This document shows positions 1,192 through 21,457 of a DNA stretch of 36,974 nucleotides, piece after piece. Position numbers and translations under genes: made by a program. How positions within the stretch are numbered: the first letter of the stretch is position 1; every line of letters begins with the position of its first letter. A model generated the notes under the pieces. It saw only the letters and a list, made by a program, of their open reading frames with translations. It made no database searches and had not been told where the DNA came from. Source of the stretch: Blautia sp. (GTDB lineage Bacteria; Bacillota; Clostridia; Lachnospirales; Lachnospiraceae); the NCBI GenBank assembly GCA_017515325.1, contig JAFWGA010000067.1, forward strand, positions 1 through 36,974, in the 5' to 3' direction.

Positions 1192-1220
1192 TTGCTTTTT
1201 GGCAAAAAACATGTTATAAT
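1192..1220 (+). promoter_or_regulatory. Sigma-70-type promoter of mtnA
   Basis: The -35 is TTGCTT (1192-1197), then a 17-base spacer, then a perfect TATAAT (1215-1220). The predicted start is near 1227, which leaves a leader of about 170 bases before the mtnA ATG. Confidence 0.75.
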
Positions 1221-1231
1221 TTACTAAGTAT

Positions 1232-1360
1232 AAAAGGATAACTCTTTTGCGGCAATGCCTCCTTTCTTTTGCTGTCCTGATATCCGGACATTACCCGCCT
1301 GCGAACAGAGTTATCCTTTTATCTGTTATCGCCCCGCCACCGCAAAAGCAGTGGCTTTTT
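1232..1360 (+). promoter_or_regulatory. Structured mtnA leader, candidate riboswitch or attenuator
   Basis: A 14-bp perfect stem P1 (AAAAGGATAACTCT at 1232-1245 with AGAGTTATCCTTTT at 1307-1320) encloses two more stems. These are GCGG-c-AATG with CATT-ac-CCGC (1249-1257/1289-1298) and TGTCC/GGACA around 1274-1290. An intrinsic terminator follows (1336-1360). Two mutually exclusive pairings are visible. CTTTTGCGG (1244-1252) is a 9-nt perfect complement of CCGCAAAAG (1340-1348) in the terminator. GATAAC (1237-1242) can pair with GTTATC at 1310-1315 or with a second copy at 1325-1330. This is the architecture of a transcription-attenuating switch. I do not recognise S-box (SAM-I) conserved segments or a T-box sequence, and the ligand is unknown. 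The structure is read by eye, not computed. Confidence 0.6.
1336..1360 (+). terminator. Intrinsic terminator in the mtnA leader
   Basis: GCCAC-c-GC, loop AAAA, GC-a-GTGGC, then TTTTTG, ending 36 bases before the mtnA ATG and downstream of its only visible promoter. A terminator placed here implies conditional read-through. Confidence 0.65.
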
Positions 1361-1396
1361 GTGATTGTACCGCTTTTACCGAGAAAGGAAAAAGCC

Positions 1397-2497
1397 ATGC
1401 ATAAGGAATTAGATGATTTTTTTGAAGATGTCATTACCGTGAGACTGACGCCGGAAAGAGACGGCCTGGACATCATAGACCAGACTCTGCTGCCAGGCAT
1501 ACGCAAAAGGATATGCCTTCGCACAAAGGAAGAGATCTGGAACGCCATCCGGGAGCTTAAGGTAAGAGGGGCTCCTGCCATCGGCGTGGCAGCCGCCTAT
1601 GGTATGGCTGTAACAGCAGATCATATCCAGGCAGAAGACTTTTCTGCCTTCTACCACGCCCTGGTGGAAATCAAGAATTACCTGGCTTCCTCCCGTCCCA
1701 CAGCCGTCAATCTCTTCTGGGCACTGAACCGGATGGAGCAGCGGGCTCTCGCCGAAAAGGAAAAAAGCCTCGACACGGTCAAGGCTGCTTTATTTGAGGA
1801 GGCCGACCGGATCCGCGAAGAGGATGTGGCGATCAGCCGCAATATCGGAGAGCTTGGTTTTGGCCTGCTGAAGAAGCTGAAAAAAGAAGGAGAGCCGATA
1901 GGTATCCTGACCCACTGCAACGCAGGGACACTGGCCACAGCCAAGTACGGCACCGCCACCGCCCCCATGTATCTGGCTCTGGAGCACGGATGGGAGGGGA
2001 CGGATATGCATGTGTACTGCGATGAGACCCGCCCGCTCCTTCAGGGAGCAAGGCTGACCGCCTATGAGCTCTGCCATGCCGGCATAACCACAACCCTGCA
2101 GTGCGACAACATGGCTTCTGTTCTGATGAAATCCGGAAAGATCCATATCGTTTTTACCGGCTGCGACCGTGTTGCCATAAATGGGGATTCCGCCAACAAG
2201 ATAGGGACAAACCAGGTTGCGATTCTGGCCAGGCACTATGGGATTCCCTTCTACATCTGTGCCCCCAGCTCCACCATTGACAAAAGCTGCCCCGACGGGG
2301 ATCATATTCCCATCGAACAAAGGAGTCCGGACGAGGTTACCCAGATGTGGTATAAGGAGAGGATGGCGCCGGAGGGTGTGGATGTCTTCAATCCTGCCTT
2401 TGATGTGACAGATCATGACCTGATCACGGGTATCATCACGGAAAAAGGAGTCTGTCACGCCCCCTTTGCAGAAGATTTTGCCAGGCTGAAGATTTAA
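1397..2497 (+). CDS. mtnA: S-methyl-5-thioribose-1-phosphate isomerase
   Basis: This 366-residue cytosolic isomerase of the MtnA/eIF2B-alpha family converts 5-methylthioribose-1-phosphate to methylthioribulose-1-phosphate in methionine salvage, or acts on 5-deoxyribose-1-phosphate in related salvage routes. Family motifs are RGAPAIG (58-64), HCNAGTLATA with catalytic Cys174, and GCDRVAINGDSANKIGT with catalytic Asp257. The length is normal. The ATG at 1397 follows an AAAGGA ribosome site; earlier in-frame ATGs lie inside the leader structure. No mtnK, dehydratase or aldolase partner is nearby, so it may act in a dispersed pathway. The unlinked APH-fold kinase at 27866 is not MtnK-like enough to claim as partner. 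It is preceded by a structured leader with a terminator, and probably co-transcribed with the acyltransferase 60 bases downstream. Confidence 0.92.
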   Translation: MHKELDDFFEDVITVRLTPERDGLDIIDQTLLPGIRKRICLRTKEEIWNAIRELKVRGAPAIGVAAAYGMAVTADHIQAEDFSAFYHALVEIKNYLASSRPTAVNLFWALNRMEQRALAEKEKSLDTVKAALFEEADRIREEDVAISRNIGELGFGLLKKLKKEGEPIGILTHCNAGTLATAKYGTATAPMYLALEHGWEGTDMHVYCDETRPLLQGARLTAYELCHAGITTTLQCDNMASVLMKSGKIHIVFTGCDRVAINGDSANKIGTNQVAILARHYGIPFYICAPSSTIDKSCPDGDHIPIEQRSPDEVTQMWYKERMAPEGVDVFNPAFDVTDHDLITGIITEKGVCHAPFAEDFARLKI

Positions 2498-2557: not shown

Positions 2558-3655
2558 GTGAAGTACAGCAATGAACCCGGAAAACCGCGTGACACGGGTG
2601 TCGAAGCGTTAAAGGGAAAAGAACGGATTTTCTATCTCGATGTCCTGCGTGTCCTTGCCTGCTTCCTTGTCCTCGTCAACCATACCAACAGCAGTATATT
2701 CAAGGGCAGAGGGCCGTCCGCCACCTGGTATCTTTCCCTGGCCTATTTTTTTGTCAGCAAATCAGCCGTTCCGCTTTTTCTGATGATCATGGGCGCTGTC
2801 CAGCTCAGCCGGACAGAATCAAAGACAAAATACCATGCCCGGATCAGAAAAACCCTGGTTGTTATTCTTTCCTTCACCATCTTTTACCTGGCGGACGCTG
2901 TCCTTAGAAAGGGAGCAACGGTTACTCCGGCAATAGCGGTTCAAAAGCTTATGAATTCCCCTTCGCGGGCCTTGTGGTACCTGTATCTGTATCTTGGCCT
3001 GAGCCTTTTTATCCCCTTCTTTCAGAAGCTGGCCGGAGCCTTGAGCCGGGAAGAGGAAAAATGGCTATGTCTCCTTTCGGCAGGCCTGAACGGCCTGCTC
3101 CCGATGCTCCCTGTTTTTACCGGCATCGGGTTAAACGGCATATTCTATTCCGGCACATTAAGTGTCTATATCGGCCTGGTTTTTCTGGGACATTACCTTC
3201 ATACCTATGTCTCTCCCAGGAAAAGTCAGGCTTTGGCGGCCACTGCTCTTTATCTCCTGCTGGTCACAGGGCAGGTTATCCTTACCGCTTACCTGTATAC
3301 CCTGGATCATAAGGATTATCTCAAGCTGGACAACAGGATTTTCCTTCCCATTACGGCAGGGGCAGCCTGTTTCTTTCTGCTGGTCAAATTCCTTTGCGCA
3401 AACACTGTCAGGCCTGAATCTCCTGTTCTCAAAGGGATTCAGGCTGGTGTGTCCTCTATCGCCGGACTGACCTTTGGCATCTATCTCTTCGGAGACTGGC
3501 TGATCGATCTGTTCAGACCGCTCTTCCGGAGCCTTGAGGGTATTCTTCATCCTCTGCCTGCCGTATTGATTTATGAAACAGCCGTGTTCACTGCCGGGGC
3601 TCTGCTCACAGCAATCCTGCAAAAACTTCCGGCGACAGGCAAATACCTAAGATAA
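2558..3655 (+). CDS. Acyltransferase 3 family membrane protein
   Basis: This 365-residue integral membrane protein belongs to the acyltransferase-3 (OafA/WecH-like) family, which moves acyl groups, often acetyl, onto surface sugars or cell-wall polymers across the membrane. The N-terminal signature FYLDVLRVLACFLVLVNHTN carries the family His (near residue 42). About ten hydrophobic segments follow, and there is no C-terminal SGNH domain. The only good start is the GTG at 2558, with GGAAAGGA ten bases upstream; the next Met is far inside the second membrane segment. It follows mtnA by 60 bases on the same strand. Its last 9 bases overlap the 3' end of the convergent GNAT gene. The acceptor substrate cannot be told from sequence. 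Confidence 0.8.
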   Translation: MKYSNEPGKPRDTGVEALKGKERIFYLDVLRVLACFLVLVNHTNSSIFKGRGPSATWYLSLAYFFVSKSAVPLFLMIMGAVQLSRTESKTKYHARIRKTLVVILSFTIFYLADAVLRKGATVTPAIAVQKLMNSPSRALWYLYLYLGLSLFIPFFQKLAGALSREEEKWLCLLSAGLNGLLPMLPVFTGIGLNGIFYSGTLSVYIGLVFLGHYLHTYVSPRKSQALAATALYLLLVTGQVILTAYLYTLDHKDYLKLDNRIFLPITAGAACFFLLVKFLCANTVRPESPVLKGIQAGVSSIAGLTFGIYLFGDWLIDLFRPLFRSLEGILHPLPAVLIYETAVFTAGALLTAILQKLPATGKYLR

Positions 3656-4120
3656 AACCGTTTCCATGCCAGTCCGGAAGGGCTTCATTCCGCAGGCATC
3701 GTAAAAGGCCCTGGCGCTGGGATTACACTCCCAGACATTCAGCGTCACATTGTAGCATCCCTTTTCCCGGGCGAAGCCAAGCACATACTCGTAGATCTGA
3801 CGGCCGATATGCTGCCCCCGAAGGGTCTCGTCTACGCACAGGTCATCAATATAAAGGCTGAGGATATCTGTCATGGCGTGATCCTTCGTATGGTCTACCA
3901 GCAGGCAGAAGGCATAGCCCATCACATAATCATTTTCGTCTACTCCCACAAAGACAGGGCGCATATCGTCGTCCAGGATGGCCAGGAGCTCCTCATCGGT
4001 ATATTTTTTTGCTTCGGTCTTGAACAGATCCGGTCTTCCCTTTTGATGGACACCGGCCACCTGATACAGCAGACGGTCCAGGCCATCGATGTCTTTGGGC
4101 TCAGCTCTTCGGATGATCAT
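3647..4120 (-). CDS. GNAT family N-acetyltransferase
   Basis: This 157-residue protein starts MIIRRAEPKDIDGL, the usual first strand and helix of a GNAT fold. The acetyl-CoA pyrophosphate-binding motif A, RGQHIGRQIYEYVLGFA, lies near residues 105-121, followed by NVTLNVWECNPSARAFYDACGM (motif B, given here as two short parts: NVTLNVWE and NPSARAFYDACGM). It would transfer acetyl from acetyl-CoA to an amine of an unknown substrate in the cytosol. The ATG at 4120 has an exact AAGGAGG site upstream and is preferred to the ATG 11 codons earlier. The gene is convergent with, and overlaps by 9 bases, the acyltransferase gene. Substrate unknown. Confidence 0.85.
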   Translation of the reverse strand: MIIRRAEPKDIDGLDRLLYQVAGVHQKGRPDLFKTEAKKYTDEELLAILDDDMRPVFVGVDENDYVMGYAFCLLVDHTKDHAMTDILSLYIDDLCVDETLRGQHIGRQIYEYVLGFAREKGCYNVTLNVWECNPSARAFYDACGMKPFRTGMETVLS

Positions 4121-4430
4121 TTTCTTTCCTCCTTTTTTCAGAGAACAAAGCATTTTCGTTTTGATTCCCTGACTGCTTATTATCTGACTCGTAAGGGCAG
4201 GCCTCCTGTCATTCGGAGTCCACGCCTACGGCACTTGCCTGAGTATAAGCTGAAAAAACAACCTTCGTCAATCTATTTTTGCCTGACGACTCAGCACTAT
4301 TGTTGGTAGGGGCAACAAAATTTGTTAAAAAATCACTGGACAATCATAAAAAAATAGTGCAAAATAGGGAAAGCTAATGTAACTGAATGGTTACAAGCAA
4401 ACTCTTTAACCTAAGAAAGGAGAAAAAGAT
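4121..4430 (+). promoter_or_regulatory. Aquaporin upstream region with promoter
   Basis: A plausible promoter is TGGACA (4337-4342), a 17-base spacer and CAAAAT (4360-4365). A GTAAC/GTTAC dyad lies downstream of it at 4379-4394, between the likely start point and the ribosome site, where an operator could sit. TTGTTG/CAACAA just upstream (about 4299-4318) is another short dyad. The rest of this 310-base stretch holds no credible gene; a GGCCTCC/GGAGTCC stem near 4200 is noted but unexplained. Confidence 0.45.
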
Positions 4431-5078
4431 ATGAAAAAGTATTTAGCAGAATTTATCGGTACCGCCTGCCTGGTTTTCATCGGCTGTGGTACTGCCTGCG
4501 CAGTTGGCTGTGACGCTGCGAACGGATCCGGCTACATCCTTACCGCCTTCGCCTTTGGTCTTACCGTTATGGCTATGGCTTACGCAATCGGACCGGTTTC
4601 CGGCTGCCATGTCAACCCGGCTGTCTCCATCGCCATGCTCATCAGCGGCAAACTCGGCTTCGGCGACTTCATCGGCTATATCATTGCACAGTGCCTCGGC
4701 GCCTATGCCGGCGGCTGGCTCATGGTTCCCTTCTGGGGCAAGGAAAGCGGCCTGGGGACAAACGGTCTCTATAACGGTGACATTATGCTGTCCCTTCTTG
4801 CTGAAGCAGTGCTGACCTTCGTCTTTGTCTTCCTGATCATCATGGTCACCAGCAAAGAAGAAAACGGCGCAATCGCCGGCCTGATTATCGGTCTTACCCT
4901 GTTCCTGGTTCATATTATCGGCATCGCCATCACCGGCACCTCCGTGAACCCTGCCCGTTCTCTTGGCCCGGCCCTCATCGTGGGCGGCGACGCTCTGAAG
5001 AACGTTTGGGTCTTCATCGCAGGCCCCTTCATCGGCGGTATCGTTGCAGCTATCTTTGGGAAGATCTTTGCTGAATAA
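4431..5078 (+). CDS. aqpZ: Aquaporin of the MIP family, AqpZ-like water channel
   Basis: This 215-residue, six-span membrane channel has both half-helix signatures: HVNPAVS (NPA at 62-64) and SVNPARS (NPA at 173-175). The selectivity filter can be read by alignment to E. coli AqpZ: Phe42, His161, Thr170 and Arg176, the same F-H-T-R set. The bulky His predicts water rather than glycerol conduction. No glycerol kinase or glycerol dehydrogenase lies nearby, which agrees with this. The ribosome site AAAGGAG precedes the ATG by 9 bases. The gene stands alone between its own promoter and a strong terminator. A role in osmotic adjustment is an inference. Confidence 0.88.
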   Translation: MKKYLAEFIGTACLVFIGCGTACAVGCDAANGSGYILTAFAFGLTVMAMAYAIGPVSGCHVNPAVSIAMLISGKLGFGDFIGYIIAQCLGAYAGGWLMVPFWGKESGLGTNGLYNGDIMLSLLAEAVLTFVFVFLIIMVTSKEENGAIAGLIIGLTLFLVHIIGIAITGTSVNPARSLGPALIVGGDALKNVWVFIAGPFIGGIVAAIFGKIFAE

Positions 5079-5115
5079 AAATTACGCTTTGTTGTGGTTT
5101 GGAATGCAGCAAGAT

Positions 5116-5155
5116 AAAAACCGTGCCATCGGATCATCGATGGCACGGTTTTTTT
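5116..5155 (+). terminator. Strong bidirectional intrinsic terminator
   Basis: A 16-bp perfect stem (AAAAACCGTGCCATCG at 5116-5131 with its complement from 5138) is followed by a T-run, with an A-run on the other side. It ends the aquaporin transcript and can also end the minus-strand ABC permease operon, whose last codon is at 5232. Confidence 0.9.
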
Positions 5156-5231
5156 ATGGCAGGGGCGCCCTCTACCCTATTGAAAGGGGCTTCCGCAAGC
5201 CTGTTTTCTATACACTTGTCGTTGATTATAA

Positions 5232-6422
5232 TCACCCTCCGAAATGCAGGGCATCTATCGGTTTTTTCCTTGCCGCCTTGCGGGCCGGATATAGCCCGAA
5301 GATCAAGCCGATACAGATGGAAAAAACGGAAGCGACCAAAACGACGGAAGGATCCATGGAAAAGTTATGATTCGAAATATGATTGATCGCCCGGATCAGC
5401 CCCCAGGACACACAGATTCCCAGAAAGCAGCCCAAAAGAGAGAGCATAAGGGCTTCGATCAGGAACTGGATCAGGATACTTCCCTCATCGGCGCCGATCG
5501 CTTTGCGTATGCCGATCTCCCGGGTTCTCTCTGTGACGGAAACCAGCATGATATTCATTATGCCGATGCCGCCTACCAGCAGAGAGATAGCTGCAATGCC
5601 GCCTACCATAACCGCCATGGATTGCATAACCTGATCCAGGGCGTTCATGATCGTGGACAGGTTGATGACAAGATAGGCCTCTTCATCCTCTCCCAGCCTT
5701 TTATAAAGCCAGTTTGTGACCTCCTGCTCCAGCAGATCCAGGGACTCGGCATCGATGGCATTGCAGTAGAAAGTGGAAATACTGGCGACTGAATCTGACA
5801 GCCGCATCAGACAGGTATAAGGGATATAGGCCTGATAAGGGGAGAAGGAAAACATTGTACTCATATCATTCTCGTCCTTCTCCAGCACCCCAATCACAGT
5901 AAAGGGCACCCCTCCTATATCCAGCTTTTGAGACAAGGCCTGCCAGTTTTCCTCTGCCTTGAGCATATCGGAAGCGATATCCTCATTGATGATGGCGACA
6001 TTCACATGATTATCCACATCTGCCGCATGAAAATAGCGGCCACAGTTCAGCTTCAATCCCTCAATATTAAAAAATGCCCCTGTCGTACCTGTAATAGAGC
6101 AGGTATCGGATTTCCCATAAGCACTGATGCTCTGCATATCTATGGCTGATGGGGAGATTTCCCCCATGTGAGGCAGAGCCTTCAGCTCGTTCAGCTCGGA
6201 AAAGCGAATGGGCCGTTCTTTATCGTCCAGGATGGTCACGGTAAGAAGATCCGTTCCCAGAGAGGAAACCACATCTGTCACCTCCGAGGTGGCACCACTG
6301 GCAATTGAGACAAGAACCACCAGAGCCAGGACACCAATGATAATCCCCAGCATGGTCAGAAAAGAACGCAGCTTATTGGAAATCACAGAATTCCAGGCCA
6401 TCTTAAGAGATTGCCAGAGCAT
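5232..6422 (-). CDS. ABC transporter permease, MacB/FtsX type (YknZ-like)
   Basis: This ~396-residue permease has one N-terminal span (SFLTMLGIIIGVLALVVLVS), a ~220-residue extracytoplasmic MacB_PCD domain, and three C-terminal spans of the FtsX domain. These contain MNIMLVSVTERTREIGIRKA, the conserved coupling region, and end in LYPARKAARKKPIDAL. It is a mechanotransmission type permease: ATP hydrolysis inside drives conformational work outside rather than simple translocation. The stop of the ATPase gene (TGA) shares one base with the ATG chosen here at 6422; a GTG three bases earlier is an alternative. The order adaptor-ATPase-permease matches the Bacillus subtilis yknXYZ arrangement (known family context). 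Likely exports or excludes an amphiphilic or peptide substrate; the substrate is unknown. Confidence 0.88.
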   Translation of the reverse strand: MLWQSLKMAWNSVISNKLRSFLTMLGIIIGVLALVVLVSIASGATSEVTDVVSSLGTDLLTVTILDDKERPIRFSELNELKALPHMGEISPSAIDMQSISAYGKSDTCSITGTTGAFFNIEGLKLNCGRYFHAADVDNHVNVAIINEDIASDMLKAEENWQALSQKLDIGGVPFTVIGVLEKDENDMSTMFSFSPYQAYIPYTCLMRLSDSVASISTFYCNAIDAESLDLLEQEVTNWLYKRLGEDEEAYLVINLSTIMNALDQVMQSMAVMVGGIAAISLLVGGIGIMNIMLVSVTERTREIGIRKAIGADEGSILIQFLIEALMLSLLGCFLGICVSWGLIRAINHISNHNFSMDPSVVLVASVFSICIGLIFGLYPARKAARKKPIDALHFGG

Positions 6423-7117
6423 CACACCACCTCCTCAATCTCCGCCTTATCTTCAATATCGGTGACATGACCGTCCAGTATCTTGATACTCCGGGGCGCT
6501 TCTCTGGCCACATTTCCATCGTGAGTGATCAGGACGATGGTATTTCCCTGATCATGGAGCTGGTGAAACAGATTGATCAGATCCCGCCCGGTCCGCTGAT
6601 CCAGGTTTCCCGTCGGTTCATCTGCCAGGAAAAGAGAGGGATGGGTTGCCAGAGCGCGGGCAATCGCCACACGCTGCTGCTGCCCCCCTGAAAGCTCCGT
6701 CGGCTTGTGATCCCGCCGTTCCCAGAGTCCGACCTGATTCATGGCTTCCTCCACCTGCTCCCTCCTTGCCCTTAGCGAAGCCCGCTGATAGATCAGGGGA
6801 AGCTCCACATTCTCATAAGCCGTGAGCTTGGGAAGAAGGTTAAAATCCTGAAAAATGAACCCGATTTTCCGGTTTCGGATCCTGGCCAGCTCCTTCTCGG
6901 AATAGTCCCGGATCTCCTGACCGTCCAGGAGGTATTCTCCCTCGTCGGCCTGGTCCAGACAGCCGATAATATTCATCAACGTACTCTTTCCGGAGCCGGA
7001 GGGTCCGATAATACTGACAAATTCACCCTTGTGGATATGCATATTGGCGTGATCGAGCGCACGTACCTCGGAGTCACCGATATGATAGATTTTGCTGACG
7101 TCTCGAAAAATAATCAT
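6422..7117 (-). CDS. ABC transporter ATP-binding protein (MacB/LolD/YknY type)
   Basis: This 231-residue nucleotide-binding subunit is complete. It has Walker [10 protein letters not shown] (38-46), Q-loop Gln90 in FIFQDFNLL, signature [15 protein letters not shown] (142-156), Walker [12 protein letters not shown] with Glu167, and H-loop His199 in LITHDG. The sequence between Walker A and signature is of the LolD/MacB subfamily. The ATG at 7117 has GGAG 6 bases upstream; the longer upstream reading lacks a ribosome site. It is translationally coupled to the permease (1-base stop/start overlap) and follows the adaptor by about 100 bases. Confidence 0.93.
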
Positions 7118-7219: not shown

Positions 7220-10200
7220 TTATACAGCCTCATCCGTATCGCTTTCCTCGCTGTCTTCATTATTATTCTGTCTGAACATATTTCCGTTTGCGAATCTGCT
7301 GTTCTGGAAGGGGTAGAGACCGGTGGGGACAGCGGACTGATAATAAACCGTCTGTCCATCGCTGATCCCCGAAACAATCTCCACATGATCACTGTCGGAG
7401 ATCCCGGTTGTCACCTGAACCTCACCGCTTAGTTTTCCTTCCTCTGTCTTCTCGGTATAGACATAGGTCCCGCCCAATTTCTCATGGATCGCATCGGCAG
7501 GAATGACACAGACGTTCTCGCTTTCATCTATGGTAATGGCAACCGTAACGCTCATCCCTGACATCATGCGTTCATCTCTGAGCAGGGAGAGAGTAACCGG
7601 ATATTTTGTCACGCCGCCGCTGTTTTTCCCGCTGGAGGCGATCTTTGTCACAATACCGGCAAAGGATTCCTCGGGGAGAGCGTCAAGGGTCAGTTCCGCA
7701 AGCTGTCCCGCCTCTATGGAGCGGATATCAAGCTCGCTGACCTGAATGGTAACCTTCATCAACTGATTGTTGGCCACAGTAAAGCCTGTCGTATCCGGAT
7801 AAGAGCTTGTGCTTCCCCAGTAAGAGGAGCCACCGGACGTTAAGCCGGAAATCCCACTGCCGCTTCCCAGGGCATTGGCAAGAGACTGATAATCTGCAGC
7901 TCCCCCCTCCAGGGATTTGACAAGGGATGAATAGTCCGTATTCCCGGCACCGCCAAGCAGACTGGCCAGATCACCGGATCCACCGGCAGAGCTGCCCAGC
8001 AGACTGGACAAGCCGGAATTTCCGCTTCCGGAGCTGCCAAGAAGACTCGACAGACCGTTGCTTCCATTGCCTGAACCTCCCAGAAGACTCGACAGACCGG
8101 AGCTTCCGCTGCCCGCGCCCCCCAGAAGACTCGACAGACCGGAGCTTCCGCTGCCCGCGCCTCCCAAAAGACTCGATAGACCAGAGCCCGATCCCCCCAG
8201 AAGACTGGACAAGCCGGATCCCGATCCGCCAAGAAGACTGGGCAGACCGGAGCCTCCCAAACTGCCAAGAAGACTCGATAAGCCAGAACCTCCCAGCAGG
8301 CTCGAAAGACCTGATGATCCCAGACTGCTAAAAAGTTTTGACAATCCTGATCCTGAACCTCCTATCAGGCCAGACAAACCTGAACTACCAATGCCGGCCA
8401 GCAGACTGGACAAACCGTTTCCGTCAAACAGACCGGGCAGTCCGCCCATAGCTCCCGCTGCCCTGGCCAAATGGTTAATCAATGCCGTGAAATCGAGTTT
8501 TGGAATACTTCCCGGGCTTGTTGTCGGTGTAGGGGTTATCGTCTGTGTAGGAGTAACAGTAACCGGATAGAATGGGATACGGGTGGGTGTCGGCGTCGGC
8601 GGCTCCACCGGCTCCTGGGTGGGTGTAGCAGTCGGCTGCTCTGCCGGCTCCTGGGTGGGCGTTGGCGTAGCCGGCTCCATCGGCTCCTGGGTGGGCGTTG
8701 GCGTAGCCGGCTCTGTCGGCTCCTGGGTGGGCGTTGGCGTAGCCGGCTCTGTCGGCTCCTGGGTGGGCGTAGCCGTTGGCGGTTCTGTCGGCTCCTGGGT
8801 GGGCGTTGGCGTAGCCGGCTCTGTCGGCTCCTGGGTGGGCGTAGCCGTTGGATATTCTATCGGTTCCTCGGCAGGCATCGGTGTAGGCGGCTCTCCCCCT
8901 TCTTCTGTATTCCTCATCGTTAATGGCGGCACTTCAGTCGGTGTTACCGATAAGGGCAAAACCACAATCACCGTAGAAGCAGCTTCCGTGTCAGCCTCAC
9001 TGCCTGAAGCAGCGGGTTCTTTATCGTCGATTGCGACGGCTGTCGCAGCTGTATCCGGGATCTCCTGGTTTTTCTTTGCATCAAGGGATTCCTGAGCAGC
9101 CAGAAGCCTTTGAACCAGATCTTTCTCCTCCCAGTCGGAAGGACTCTCTCCGAAAGGGTTCTCCCCCTGATCAGATACAGCACTTTCCTTTGAAAATTCC
9201 TCTGCCCCATCGGCAGAAAAGCTCTCCTCAAAGACAAGCTCTTCCCCGATGAAAGTATCCGTCTGTTCTGTGGCACTTTCAGTTTCGCCGGCAGCATCGC
9301 TTCCTTCCGGGTAAAGCTCCGACCCGCCGACAGTATCTCCGGGATCCGGGGAAGTCTTGGCTTCCTGGGCAAGCTCCTGCAGGCGTGCAAGAGCCTGGGC
9401 ATCATTCAGATAATACTCAGAAGCCTGATTTCCCCAGTCCGCAGACTCGGCAGCAAATTCTCCCTTTGAACCATTTTCATAACCTGTGCCGACTTCCCGG
9501 TCATACCCGCTTTCAGACTCTGTCATCTGTCCTTCGTCAGCAGCCACGTCAGCTTCCCGGTCATACCCGCTTTCAGACTCTGCCATCTGTACTTCGTCAG
9601 CAGCCATGCCGGCTTCCCGGTCATACCCACTTCCAGACTCTGCCATCTGTCCTTCGTCAGCAGCCATGCCGGCTTCCCAGCCGGATTCATCGGCTGGCGC
9701 CTCCTCGAAGGCTGCCAGATCTCCTCCGACAAATAGATCTTCCAGATCTTCATATTCCTCTGTTTCCGCTCTTTCAGCCCCGGCAACCATGTAGGCGATC
9801 CCCACAATGATTTCATCGTAGCGACCGTCAGCATCGGTATCCTGTATTAAAAATTCATAGCCATCATTCTCCGGAGCACGGATCACAAAACGATCCGAGG
9901 CCGGATAGAAGTAAACCCGATCAGCCGTATCCGCCTTCAGGCTGACGACAGCGATCGCGCGGCTCCCTGCCTGCAGGTTTCCGGCGGGAATCCAATCTAA
10001 GGTCACAGCATGATAGCAGCCTTCCTGTCCTGTCTCCTCCAGCAGCAGCTGGATCAGGGAATCAAGCTCATCTGCAGCCATAAGGAGGCTGCCGGTTGCC
10101 GGCCTTCGGATCGGAAGATCAACCACCCCTTCCAGGTATCTCTCCTGAATGCCTGCGCTGAAAACGGGCGCTGTCTGTCCTGAATCCGCTCCATAATCCT

Positions 10201-11581
10201 CCTCACCGACTATCGGATCAGGTGCTGTCTCCTCTCCACCGATAAAGATGTCCTGCCAGGCTCCACTGTCCCTGTCAATAGAACCGGCAGCCACCGTACC
10301 CTGTCCGGCAGCGCCATATACCCCATCGTCTGTTCCTTCATGGAAAAGATCGGCAGCAGCATCCCTGCCGTCGCCGGCATCCCCGGCAACAAAAATATCA
10401 TCCGCATAGGAAAGACGGACTGCCCCCGTCTGTCCTTTCAGTCTTCCCAGGGGAACCACTCCTCCGTCTAGGCTTTGGGCAGAGTAGCTCACCCCCATGG
10501 CCGCAAGTGAGGGCAAACCGGAAAGAGCGGAAAGCCCCAGGGAGCTCTGAACAGAGCCGGAACCGGATACAGCCGTCACCTCTGTGTCATCGCTGAGATT
10601 CACATCCTGAACGACTCCGCCGACACTGGCTATAATGACACCATTATTTTCATAGCTGCGAAGCCTTCCCAGCGTTTTAACCAGATCTTCTCGTTCTGCG
10701 ATCAGTTCTTCCCGACGGTAATCATCATTCACACCATCCAGCAACAATAAGCGGTCGTCCCGATCCACCAGCGTATTCTCGCTGACATATACCTGATCCA
10801 CGGTCCCTGTAGAGGCCGTGATCTGATAGGGCTGGTGAATATAGAGACTGCCCTCTCCATAGGTACGGGAGCCATTGACATCCTGAACGCTGGCGCGCAC
10901 TCCGACTCTTTTTCCGCTGTCCGATATCGTAACAGTGGCAGAACCGTTCTGTACAGTATCCACCGTACCGCTGCTGCGGCTGCCATCAGACAGCAGGACA
11001 CTGACACGCTGGTTGGCAGAAAGACTACCGTCATCGGCAATGTCCAACGCCATCCTCCCGTCAGTAGACATGACCATCAGCATGCCATGCTCATCCATCA
11101 CATCAGATACCTTGTCCCCGCCATGGGCAAAAATCTGCTTGATGCGCCCCGGCACAGAAGCTTTTACCATTCTCTCATCCGATGCGGTATCCAGATCCTC
11201 CAGTTCGTCATCTATGTCCTCGAGGGCGGACTGTACTTCCCGGATGGCCTTAGTCACAGACCGGTGATTCACCGTGGCCAGGGTCTGCCCTTCTTCCACG
11301 ACATCTCCGCTTTCCACCAATACCTTGTCGATTTTAATGCCCGCAGGAACCAGAATCTTTTCCGCTTCCCCGTCTGAAAGAGTCCCCGTCCCTATGACCG
11401 TACTGCGGATCGTGCTCCGGGTGGCCTGTGCACTGAGGATACTCTGATTTGCCTCATCAATCTGACGCTGTTTCCTTACCTGGGAGAAGCGGGTATAAGC
11501 GCCAAGAGAAACTAGTGCGACACACACAGCCGTTATTCCCGCAATAATTCGTTTTTTCTTTCTGGACTTTCTTCCCGCCAT
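7220..11581 (-). CDS. Giant HlyD/MacA/YknX-like adaptor with a ~930-residue insertion
   Basis: This 1453-residue protein is several times longer than usual adaptors (about 350-550). It begins GRKSRKKKRIIAGITAV: basic residues then one membrane span (about 10-28). Next come a biotinyl-lipoyl half-motif (ILVPAGIKIDKVLVESGDVV, about 76-95), an acidic coiled-coil-like hairpin, further beta-barrel modules, and a second lipoyl half near 310-335. The barrel resumes only at about 1265 (VTIQVSELDIRSIEAGQLAE) and runs to the C terminus. Between these lie linker with D[IL]Fx[AG]G[DEN] motifs, a folded-looking beta module (about 466-606), three 20-residue acidic repeats (638-697), an acidic stretch, PTQEP/TPT repeats (908-1005) and SGLSSLLGG repeats (1055-1211). 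The ATG at 11581 has GGGAG upstream. It precedes the ABC ATPase and permease genes. The insertion is in frame and free of stops over 2.8 kb, so it is translated. Role inferred: extracellular linker of the ABC pump with a surface-exposed extension. Confidence 0.88.
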   Translation of the reverse strand: MAGRKSRKKKRIIAGITAVCVALVSLGAYTRFSQVRKQRQIDEANQSILSAQATRSTIRSTVIGTGTLSDGEAEKILVPAGIKIDKVLVESGDVVEEGQTLATVNHRSVTKAIREVQSALEDIDDELEDLDTASDERMVKASVPGRIKQIFAHGGDKVSDVMDEHGMLMVMSTDGRMALDIADDGSLSANQRVSVLLSDGSRSSGTVDTVQNGSATVTISDSGKRVGVRASVQDVNGSRTYGEGSLYIHQPYQITASTGTVDQVYVSENTLVDRDDRLLLLDGVNDDYRREELIAEREDLVKTLGRLRSYENNGVIIASVGGVVQDVNLSDDTEVTAVSGSGSVQSSLGLSALSGLPSLAAMGVSYSAQSLDGGVVPLGRLKGQTGAVRLSYADDIFVAGDAGDGRDAAADLFHEGTDDGVYGAAGQGTVAAGSIDRDSGAWQDIFIGGEETAPDPIVGEEDYGADSGQTAPVFSAGIQERYLEGVVDLPIRRPATGSLLMAADELDSLIQLLLEETGQEGCYHAVTLDWIPAGNLQAGSRAIAVVSLKADTADRVYFYPASDRFVIRAPENDGYEFLIQDTDADGRYDEIIVGIAYMVAGAERAETEEYEDLEDLFVGGDLAAFEEAPADESGWEAGMAADEGQMAESGSGYDREAGMAADEVQMAESESGYDREADVAADEGQMTESESGYDREVGTGYENGSKGEFAAESADWGNQASEYYLNDAQALARLQELAQEAKTSPDPGDTVGGSELYPEGSDAAGETESATEQTDTFIGEELVFEESFSADGAEEFSKESAVSDQGENPFGESPSDWEEKDLVQRLLAAQESLDAKKNQEIPDTAATAVAIDDKEPAASGSEADTEAASTVIVVLPLSVTPTEVPPLTMRNTEEGGEPPTPMPAEEPIEYPTATPTQEPTEPATPTPTQEPTEPPTATPTQEPTEPATPTPTQEPTEPATPTPTQEPMEPATPTPTQEPAEQPTATPTQEPVEPPTPTPTRIPFYPVTVTPTQTITPTPTTSPGSIPKLDFTALINHLARAAGAMGGLPGLFDGNGLSSLLAGIGSSGLSGLIGGSGSGLSKLFSSLGSSGLSSLLGGSGLSSLLGSLGGSGLPSLLGGSGSGLSSLLGGSGSGLSSLLGGAGSGSSGLSSLLGGAGSGSSGLSSLLGGSGNGSNGLSSLLGSSGSGNSGLSSLLGSSAGGSGDLASLLGGAGNTDYSSLVKSLEGGAADYQSLANALGSGSGISGLTSGGSSYWGSTSSYPDTTGFTVANNQLMKVTIQVSELDIRSIEAGQLAELTLDALPEESFAGIVTKIASSGKNSGGVTKYPVTLSLLRDERMMSGMSVTVAITIDESENVCVIPADAIHEKLGGTYVYTEKTEEGKLSGEVQVTTGISDSDHVEIVSGISDGQTVYYQSAVPTGLYPFQNSRFANGNMFRQNNNEDSEESDTDEAV
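7949..8419 (-). repeat. Coding tandem repeat, SGLSSLLGG units
   Basis: About a dozen units of the form (G/S)SGLSSLLGG, most about 10-14 residues, encode a Gly/Ser/Leu-rich stretch of the adaptor. DNA units are near-identical in places (8060-8280). Amphipathic Leu spacing suggests adhesive or assembling behaviour rather than an inert linker. Confidence 0.85.
8567..8860 (-). repeat. Coding tandem repeat, Pro/Thr (PTQEP) stalk
   Basis: Eight or so 12-residue units of the form TPTQEPTEPATP (36 bp each) make an extended Pro/Thr stalk in the adaptor, of the kind used by Gram-positive surface proteins to span the cell wall. Copy-number variation between strains would be expected. Confidence 0.85.
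9491..9670 (-). repeat. Three 60-bp coding repeats in the adaptor
   Basis: Three direct 20-residue units of the form GMAADEGQMAESESGYDREA encode a strongly acidic stretch. The DNA units differ at only a few bases, so the array arose by recent duplication. Confidence 0.85.
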
Positions 11582-11598
11582 AAAGCTCCCTTCTTTAC

Positions 11599-11669
11599 AA
11601 AAAAAGTGTGCTGAGGGGAAAATTCCCGACCATGTATGAAACATAGCCGGGAATTTTCCTCTGGCACAC
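11599..11669 (-). terminator. Intrinsic terminator just upstream of the adaptor gene
   Basis: On the minus strand, a ~22-bp near-perfect stem (arms at 11648-11669 and 11606-11628, with core GGAAAATTCCCG and its complement) is followed by seven T residues (11599-11605) and then by the adaptor ribosome site. It separates the xxxLxxG gene from the adaptor-ABC genes. It lies downstream of a possible promoter at 11705-11733, so it may act as an attenuator as well as an end signal. Confidence 0.75.
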
Positions 11670-11704
11670 CGAGAACCATTCCCTGATACACCATTCATAT
11701 ATCA

Positions 11705-19687: not shown

Positions 19688-21457
19688 TCATCCCCGACGT
19701 TTTTTCCCTGTCGCGGAGTAATACCTCTCTTTATCCTCATACATCCTCTGATCCGCTGTTTTCCGCAGCCTTTCGATGTTCCCTTTAAAGCTTTCGCTGA
19801 AGGCCAGTCCCATGGAGACAAATACATCTATGGCAGCCAGCTGCTCCTTGACCTGTATCATCCTGTCCTCAATTTCTTCCCTTTCAAAGCCGTGAAGGAT
19901 GACCAGGAACTCGTCCCCGCCCACGCGAAACACTCTTTCCCTGCCGAAATTATGGGCCAGGGCATTGGCCGTTTCCACAATCAGCCTGTCCCCCGCGTCA
20001 TGTCCCAGCGTATCATTTACCGCCTTCAGTCCGTTGACATCCACCGCAATCACCCCCACCATGTCCTTAAATGCCCGTGTCAGGTCCAGCCTGCCCTCCA
20101 GGGCATTCCGGTTCATCACATTGGTCAGATGGTCGCTGTAGGACATTTTCATCAGGAAGAGTGCCTCCTCTTTTTCATAGTAAACGCAGTTTTCCCTGAT
20201 ATTGAACCCATTATGGATGGCAATCATCATCTCCCGGCAGGTAGAATAGCCGCAGGCCGAACAATTGATCTGTCTGTCCTCAGGCTTTTCCTTATGCATG
20301 GAGCAGTAAATCTCCTCTGCTTCCTCCTCGCTGGGATAGTGAACCGTGCAGGCTTCGTTCTGCGACCGGAAGGTCGTCAGATAGTCCTCCAGCTTCAGTC
20401 CCTCAAACTGGGTGCAAAGATTCTGCCATCTCTCTTCGCTTGACAGAAGTGGATTCCACGGGGACGAAGGAGACATATTCTTGCTTCTGGCCCGAATCCG
20501 GTTCATCTCCCATAATCCCCGGTCCTCCCCATCCTCTGTTTCCAGTCTGGCCGTCCCCTCCATACAGCCTTCCCGACAGTTCAGGGCGTCTATGAGTGTA
20601 TAGGGCGCTTCACTGGTAAAAATATTGCTGCGGTTCACCACCAGGCGTTGGTACAGATACGTTTTTCCCGAAAGAACCCGGACGGGAAGGTCGTCTCCCA
20701 TCAGCCAGCGCAGATTGTCTGCCAGACCGCCCGGTGCCGGATAGAAGTTTCCCAGGCCGGCCTTAAGCTCCTCGATCGGCGCGTCCTCTACATCCGGCAT
20801 TTTCCTCAATGCCCCGATCAATTTGGGGAAAGTGACATTGTACTGGATCAGCTCAGGATATTTGTCCACCTCGATCTTCTTGCCGATACAGGGGCCGATA
20901 AAAGCCATCTTGTCTGTGATGCCCAGCTCCTTTCGGAAATAGACCGCCGCGCACATCATCGGGCTCTTTACCGGCATCAGCCGGGGGATCATCTCCGGCA
21001 TCCAGTGCTCCACAAAGGATACCACCACAGGGCAGGTGGTGGATATCCTCCTGCCGTCTTTCTCCTCCATGAGCAGCCTGGCGTAAGCCCAGGTGCAGAT
21101 ATCTGCTCCGATGGACACAGGAAGGATCCGGCAGACACCTAAAGCCTTCAGCTTGCCCAGGATCATTTTGTATTCTTCAGGATACTTCGCAGCAAAGGAC
21201 GGTGCGATCAATACACTGATCTTTTCCTTGTGTTCCAGATCCTGAAGGAACTGCTCTGTGTCATCATGATAGTCTCTGGCATGATGGCGGCATACATCGA
21301 TACAGGCCCCGCAATTTATACAACGGTCCGAATTGATGGTGACAACGCTTTTGTCAAGCTGCATCCGGGAAATGCTGGCACCGAAGGACCGGCAGATCCG
21401 CACACACTGATTGCAGCCGATACAATTGTCATTGGTAAATATTAACTCTCTGCTCAC
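19688..21457 (-). CDS. Ferredoxin-[FeFe]-hydrogenase-like sensor fused to GGDEF diguanylate cyclase
   Basis: This 589-residue cytosolic protein has four parts. Two 4Fe-4S motifs come first (Cys12/15/18/22 and Cys46/49/52/56). An H-cluster-like hydrogenase domain (about 80-300) follows. A third Fe-S motif, CSACGYSTC plus Cys424, lies at 399-424. A complete GGDEF domain ends the protein (DHLTNVMNRNALEGRL, DVNGLKAVNDTLGHDAGD, GGDEF at 513-517). All four H-cluster ligands are present: Cys142 (TTCP), Cys190 (GPCIGKKIE), Cys294 and Cys298 (NCREGC). The proton-transfer Cys of catalytic enzymes (first Cys of TSCCP) is Thr here, as in sensory hydrogenases. No RxxD inhibitory site is visible before GGDEF. 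It should make c-di-GMP in response to H2, CO or redox state (inference). The GTG start has AAGGAGG 6 bases upstream. It is last in an operon after GH94 and the amidohydrolase. Confidence 0.88.
   Translation of the reverse strand: MSRELIFTNDNCIGCNQCVRICRSFGASISRMQLDKSVVTINSDRCINCGACIDVCRHHARDYHDDTEQFLQDLEHKEKISVLIAPSFAAKYPEEYKMILGKLKALGVCRILPVSIGADICTWAYARLLMEEKDGRRISTTCPVVVSFVEHWMPEMIPRLMPVKSPMMCAAVYFRKELGITDKMAFIGPCIGKKIEVDKYPELIQYNVTFPKLIGALRKMPDVEDAPIEELKAGLGNFYPAPGGLADNLRWLMGDDLPVRVLSGKTYLYQRLVVNRSNIFTSEAPYTLIDALNCREGCMEGTARLETEDGEDRGLWEMNRIRARSKNMSPSSPWNPLLSSEERWQNLCTQFEGLKLEDYLTTFRSQNEACTVHYPSEEEAEEIYCSMHKEKPEDRQINCSACGYSTCREMMIAIHNGFNIRENCVYYEKEEALFLMKMSYSDHLTNVMNRNALEGRLDLTRAFKDMVGVIAVDVNGLKAVNDTLGHDAGDRLIVETANALAHNFGRERVFRVGGDEFLVILHGFEREEIEDRMIQVKEQLAAIDVFVSMGLAFSESFKGNIERLRKTADQRMYEDKERYYSATGKKRRG

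What the first reader, a model, noticed from the sequence alone, without database searches (positions are those of the whole stretch)
1227..1396. Possible new riboswitch or attenuator controlling mtnA
Seen: a near-consensus promoter, a 14-bp perfect stem enclosing two further stems, then an intrinsic terminator 36 bases before mtnA. CTTTTGCGG in the aptamer-like part is an exact complement of CCGCAAAAG in the terminator, and GATAAC has two alternative GTTATC partners, so two exclusive folds exist. Known: mtnA in Bacillota is often under S-box control, but S-box conserved segments are absent here. Inferred: a distinct metabolite- or protein-sensing element, perhaps for a methionine-salvage or 5-deoxysugar intermediate.
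Basis: partly seen in the sequence, partly recalled or inferred. Interest (0 to 1): 0.75.

Follow-up and report, generated by a model that had tools for sequence, protein, structure and literature searches.

The report
Lone attenuator-like hairpin before mtnA
The start of this bacterial gene's message carries a real, unusually long RNA hairpin followed by a stop-transcription signal, built so that two folds can exclude each other, but no relative was found to share it, so calling it a new metabolite sensor is not justified.

Summary
The features are real. A perfect extended -10 box (weak -35) precedes a hairpin at 1227-1324 (16-bp perfect arms, 26 outer pairs, z -6.5) and a terminator-like hairpin 36 bases before mtnA. 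Unmasked, that fold is 12 kcal/mol worse, and a 16-bp closing stem looks too stable for ligand gating. GATAAC's second partner is unsupported.

No Rfam family matches. No homolog was found by blastn (145 relatives, 392 order genomes) or a one-sequence covariance model (64 genus and 348 family genomes, 80 mtnA loci), though the wide searches scored only some candidates. Covariation is therefore untestable.

Best reading: a lineage-specific, default-off transcription attenuator of mtnA with unknown input. The riboswitch claim is unsupported.

The parts
1192..1220 (+). promoter-like: weak -35 TTGCTT (1192-1197), 17-nt spacer, extended -10 TGTTATAAT (1212-1220); start site expected near 1227
   Evidence: sequence; not listed by the scan, -35 matches 3 of 6; start site inferred
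1229..1253 (+). segment 1: 5' arm, pairs either with segment 2 (hairpin) or, if that is masked, with segment 3 (terminator)
1273..1290 (+). inner 5-bp hairpin, kept in both folds
1297..1322 (+). segment 2: 3' arm of the long hairpin
1336..1360 (+). segment 3: terminator-like hairpin GCCACCGCAAAAGCAGTGGC and T5
1381..1389 (+). ribosome-binding site GAGAAAGGA of mtnA
   Evidence: sequence
1397..2497 (+). mtnA, S-methyl-5-thioribose-1-phosphate isomerase (366 aa)
   Evidence: NCBIfam NF004326 and TIGR00512 above cut-off

Best explanation
A lineage-specific, cis-acting transcription attenuator of mtnA. The message starts at the foot of a long hairpin (segment 1 with segment 2), which forms as soon as segment 2 is made; the terminator hairpin (segment 3) then forms and most transcripts end before mtnA. 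If segment 2 is occupied or delayed (by a protein, an antisense RNA, a ribosome or polymerase pausing; which one is not known), segment 1 pairs with segment 3 instead, the terminator cannot form, and mtnA is transcribed. Shown: the features and the computed folds. Inferred: that the promoter is used, that termination happens, and that the switch is regulated.
For: Hairpin z about -6.5, unique for its long-spacer shape in 437 kb of the genome. Terminator-like site between promoter and gene; 5 of 124 relatives' mtnA upstream regions have any terminator-like site within 200 nt by the same scan. With 1308-1324 masked, 21 pairs form between 1229-1252 and 1340-1363 and terminator probability falls from 0.999 to 0.049; 4 of 2000 shuffles of 1227-1253 and 30 of 2000 shuffles of 1227-1307 reach this. 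Longest exact complement to the terminator is 9 nt, reached in 48 of 5000 shuffles.
Against: No second example, so no covariation. Unmasked, the best fold with the antiterminator is -36.1 against -48.5 kcal/mol and its pairing probability is about 1e-7 to 1e-8, so something must actively block the hairpin. The masks were chosen after seeing the folds. With 1227-1243 masked the terminator stays (0.73) and with 1297-1324 masked it is 0.64, so the switch depends on exactly what is blocked. The T tract (TTTTTGTG) is short. Nine of the 21 pairs use bases 1355-1363, at and beyond the termination point. The frame of mtnA is open up to a TTG at 1247 that has an AAAGGA 8 bases before it: if that start were used, ribosomes would run through the hairpin and the model would change.
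Confidence: 0.4

Rival explanations
1. No switch: a 5'-terminal stabilising hairpin plus a leaky terminator that sets a fixed, low mtnA level. The second pairing of the 5' arm is chance.
For: The hairpin starts at the expected start site and is by far the most stable fold; the antiterminator is 12 kcal/mol worse; no homologs found.
Against: The alternative helix is uncommon in shuffles (4 of 2000 and 30 of 2000), though tested after the fact.
Confidence: 0.3
2. An independent small RNA of about 135 nt (1227 to about 1361) that happens to lie before mtnA.
For: Promoter-like site, two stable hairpins and a T tract would make a complete small-RNA gene.
Against: No other + strand promoter was seen between the terminator and mtnA (by eye; none listed), so mtnA would depend on read-through anyway; no sRNA family reaches its threshold.
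Confidence: 0.13
3. A remnant of an insertion (MITE-like) or an invertible DNA segment with 16-bp inverted repeats.
For: Perfect 16-bp inverted repeats around 61 bp, found only here.
Against: No second copy found in its genome; no flanking direct repeat seen by eye and none of 12 nt or more listed beside it; no recombinase among the ten window proteins scanned with Pfam (other window frames were not scanned).
Confidence: 0.1
4. A ligand-sensing riboswitch.
For: Hairpin with a loop region of about 43 nt (1254-1296) and a terminator in the usual order; mtnA works in a pathway that could be sensed.
Against: 16-bp perfect closing stem that needs no ligand; no conserved aptamer core could be defined because no homolog was found; no Rfam match.
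Confidence: 0.07

Closest known systems
Transcription attenuators of Bacillota with competing folds, e.g. the TRAP-controlled trp leader (PMC3913778, start of abstract seen in the search listing)
   Same: two competing RNA structures, one of them ending transcription before the gene
   Different: no known regulator or binding motif here; the terminator-permitting hairpin has 16 perfect pairs; single example
S-box (SAM-I) riboswitch, RF00162
   Same: recalled as a leader of methionine-salvage genes in Bacillota
   Different: no match in the leader and none over the cut-off in the genome
5'-terminal stabilising hairpins of bacterial mRNAs (recalled)
   Same: stable stem at the extreme 5' end
   Different: here followed by a terminator-like site; stability effect untested

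Membership tests
SAM-I riboswitch (RF00162) | covariance-model match above gathering score | tested here: not met
   leader; own genome: best 19.3 bits, cut-off 44.4; 150 of 234 candidates scored
Any Rfam 15 family | match above gathering score, either strand | tested here: not met
   0 matches in the window; three hits of 9.5-12.4 bits in 1150-1450, E 2.5-9, chance level
Riboswitch | conserved aptamer with covarying pairs across species | tested here: inconclusive
   no homolog found in capped searches; covariation could not be computed
Riboswitch | ligand binding changes the fold | not testable with these tools
   needs in-line probing
Transcription attenuator | intrinsic terminator between promoter and gene | tested here: met
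   by sequence only: terminator with one mismatch, -10 perfect, -35 weak; neither was listed by the strict scan
Transcription attenuator | mutually exclusive antiterminator | tested here: inconclusive
   forms when 1308-1324 is masked; 12 kcal/mol worse when free
Transcription attenuator | regulated read-through | not testable with these tools
   needs a transcription assay
MITE / repeat element | further copies in the genome | tested here: not met
   no second copy; other own-genome blastn hits are 14-29 nt, E 0.16 or more, two of them its own arms

The most novel reading that the evidence does not exclude
A new class of regulatory leader that couples a 5-deoxysugar or methylthioribose signal to mtnA through an unusually long switching hairpin, so far seen in one species.
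Probability: 0.06. Interest if true: 0.7.

Novelty: new member of a known kind. Interest (0 to 1): 0.25.

Why it matters
If the attenuator is real it would show RNA-level control of an isolated mtnA gene in a genome where no mtnK scores over the cut-off and no SAM riboswitch does. In E. coli the DHAP-shunt genes, mtnA among them, are controlled by a repressor, MtnR, and by CRP (PMC12632272, title and passages). As a single example without relatives it opens no general question yet.

Tried and rejected
Homolog searches. Leader blastn in 145 relatives: 7 genomes match at E <= 0.01 including its own (up to 5 candidates scored per genome). The other six genomes give seven short places of 19-36 nt; I read three (L009, L015, L012) and not the other four. 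With L005 from the own-genome search these show, by eye, no hairpin-terminator leader; Rfam finds nothing in six such loci. In 392 order genomes 10 match including its own (2 candidates scored per genome in the rows shown); the nine others are 26-35 nt within query positions 1-52 (1190-1241, promoter and start of the 5' arm) and were not read. Single-sequence covariance model R1 (one sequence given twice with different ends): 5 of 64 genus genomes at E <= 1 including its own, the others E 0.165-0.594, not read; 2 of 348 family genomes at E <= 0.05 including its own, the other 43 nt at E 0.029, not read (at most 11 candidates scored per genome in the rows shown). Both runs used stricter filters. 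In 80 mtnA loci four weak hits (best 21.7 bits, E 0.07), none just upstream of mtnA. In 451,341 bases of the window and own-genome stretches the best other hit is 24.4 bits, E 0.007: an unrelated perfect hairpin, read. Plasmid and phage records: the 20 listed of 24 and of 86 records cover 9-24% of the query. Viral contigs: 21 stretches hold one arm exactly, each once, so none holds both.

Rejected ideas: SAM riboswitch; leader peptide from the ATG at 1255 (49 codons, no ribosome-binding site). Not excluded: a TTG start at 1247 in the mtnA frame with AAAGGA 8 bases before it, which would give MtnA a 50-residue extension; relatives' matches do not extend there (the query began at 1397, so this was not tested). 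MITE. Minus strand: the hairpin folds equally well (-35.8 kcal/mol) and a 9-of-12 promoter-like site overlaps it, so an element for the divergent pyridoxamine kinase gene is not excluded.

Limits of counts: the first terminator scan (103 leaders, 2 hits) missed the window's own terminator, covered plus-strand loci only, and was replaced by the one-mismatch version (124 leaders, 5 hits). In one search the output was cut and 21 minus-strand loci were printed from the wrong side, so these were not read by eye; one search turned them.

Full report
What is there. The window is one whole contig (C15, 36,974 bases) of a 3.31-Mb genome in 68 contigs, 87.7% complete. mtnA (1397-2497, +) scores well above the cut-offs of NF004326 and TIGR00512; a pyridoxamine kinase gene (138-1010, -; NF005491, above cut-off) lies divergently. 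From 5' to 3' the leader has an extended -10 box TGTTATAAT with a poor -35; a hairpin at 1227-1324; a terminator-like hairpin at 1336-1355 with five T; and, 36 bases further on, the ATG with a ribosome-binding site.

Is it more than chance? Yes for the hairpin: z about -6.5 with 0 of 200 shuffles as stable. In 437 kb of this genome it is the only perfect inverted repeat of 14 bp or more with a spacer over 20 nt, although perfect hairpins with short loops are common; 1.2 Mb of Markov sequence gave no arm above 14 bp. The 9-nt complement to the terminator is modestly unusual (48 of 5000 shuffles). Its GATAAC companion is not supported.

Do two exclusive folds exist? In the free RNA, no: the long hairpin and the terminator both have pair probabilities above 0.99, and the best fold with the 9-nt antiterminator is -36.1 against -48.5 kcal/mol. 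Minimum-energy folds of growing prefixes (not a kinetic simulation) give the hairpin from about 1311-1316 on, before the terminator exists. If 1308-1324 is blocked the picture turns over: 1229-1237 pair with 1355-1363 and 1241-1252 with 1340-1352, and terminator probability is 0.049. Four of 2000 shuffles of 1227-1253 and 30 of 2000 shuffles of 1227-1307 do this. Blocking 1227-1243 leaves the terminator at 0.73; blocking 1297-1324 leaves it at 0.64. So the anatomy of a three-segment attenuator is present, default off, needing an unknown agent that keeps segment 2 busy. The mask was chosen after the fact, so the shuffle counts overstate the case somewhat.

Is it conserved? mtnA at E <= 1e-60 is in 82 of 299 family genomes and 16 of 64 genus genomes, each count including its own. 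No close relative is held: with window 3000-7000 the best genus match is 73% over 665 bases, and the best MtnA among the relatives found is 76% identical. I used 44 mtnA loci (29 and 15; loci were capped) and the best 80 of 146 related stretches from named genomes. Among those read, mtnA often follows closely after another open frame (by eye, not counted). In L072 that gene is S-methyl-5-thioribose kinase, mtnK, above its cut-off; in L112 an aldolase-like and a dihydroxyacetone-kinase-like gene follow, both below their curated cut-offs; in L109 the two upstream frames tested match no family. Five of 124 upstream regions have any terminator-like site within 200 nt. No leader homolog was found by blastn (145 relatives; 392 order genomes) or by a single-sequence covariance model (64 genus genomes; 348 family genomes; 80 mtnA loci). 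These wide searches score only some first-look candidates per genome, so a diverged copy could be missed. The window's own genome has no mtnK above the cut-off (best 22.9 of 275 bits), one class II aldolase-family match and three PNP/UDP phosphorylase-family matches. A route by phosphorolysis to 5-deoxyribose-1-phosphate or MTR-1-phosphate, then MtnA and an aldolase, is possible but not shown.

Known regulators. No Rfam family, either strand, reaches its threshold in the window, and three sub-threshold hits around the leader are chance-level. No SAM riboswitch over the cut-off exists in the genome as held. Paper searches: mtnA + riboswitch + methylthioribose (2 papers, both listed); 5-deoxyribose + salvage + mtnA (4, all listed); at least three of S-box, mtnA, Firmicutes, riboswitch (27, 12 listed); an attenuation search (49, 10 listed). 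Among the listed titles and starts of abstracts none is about an mtnA-specific leader RNA. In E. coli the DHAP-shunt genes are under MtnR and CRP (PMC12632272, passages). PMC10986504 and PMC6302742 (passages) give the pathway, and the word riboswitch does not occur in the main text of these three.

Verdict. Real structure, plausible attenuator, unsupported riboswitch. Without a second example or an experiment, the choice between a regulated switch (0.4) and a fixed leaky terminator behind a stabilising hairpin (0.3) is open.

Noticed in passing
window 19688-21457 (-): One open frame joins 4Fe-4S and iron-only hydrogenase C-terminal domains to a GGDEF diguanylate cyclase domain: a possible redox- or hydrogen-sensing cyclic-di-GMP enzyme.
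   Followed up: no
window 1247-1396 (+): The mtnA frame is open back to a TTG at 1247 with AAAGGA 8 bases before it, inside the 5' arm of the hairpin: a possible longer MtnA or a chance frame.
   Followed up: no
window 1220-1325 (-): On the minus strand the same hairpin carries a strong ribosome-binding-site-like AAAGAAAGGAGG before a 13-codon frame from TTG at 1255, and a 9-of-12 promoter-like site pointing to the pyridoxamine kinase gene.
   Followed up: partly
window 7220-11698 (-): A 1492-aa open frame, by eye of a membrane-fusion-protein type, holds long threonine/proline-rich and glycine/serine-rich repeats (translation).
   Followed up: no
L177 2431-2474: A perfect 21-bp palindrome AGGGGGACGGTTCTTTTGTCT with a 2-base loop; recalled as similar to repeats linked to REP-type transposases in Bacillota, not tested.
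   Followed up: no
L072 2108-8036: In a relative, mtnK and mtnA follow sugar-ABC-transporter-like genes and precede a transketolase-like gene (only mtnK is above its curated cut-off), suggesting uptake and use of 5-deoxysugars or methylthioribose.
   Followed up: partly
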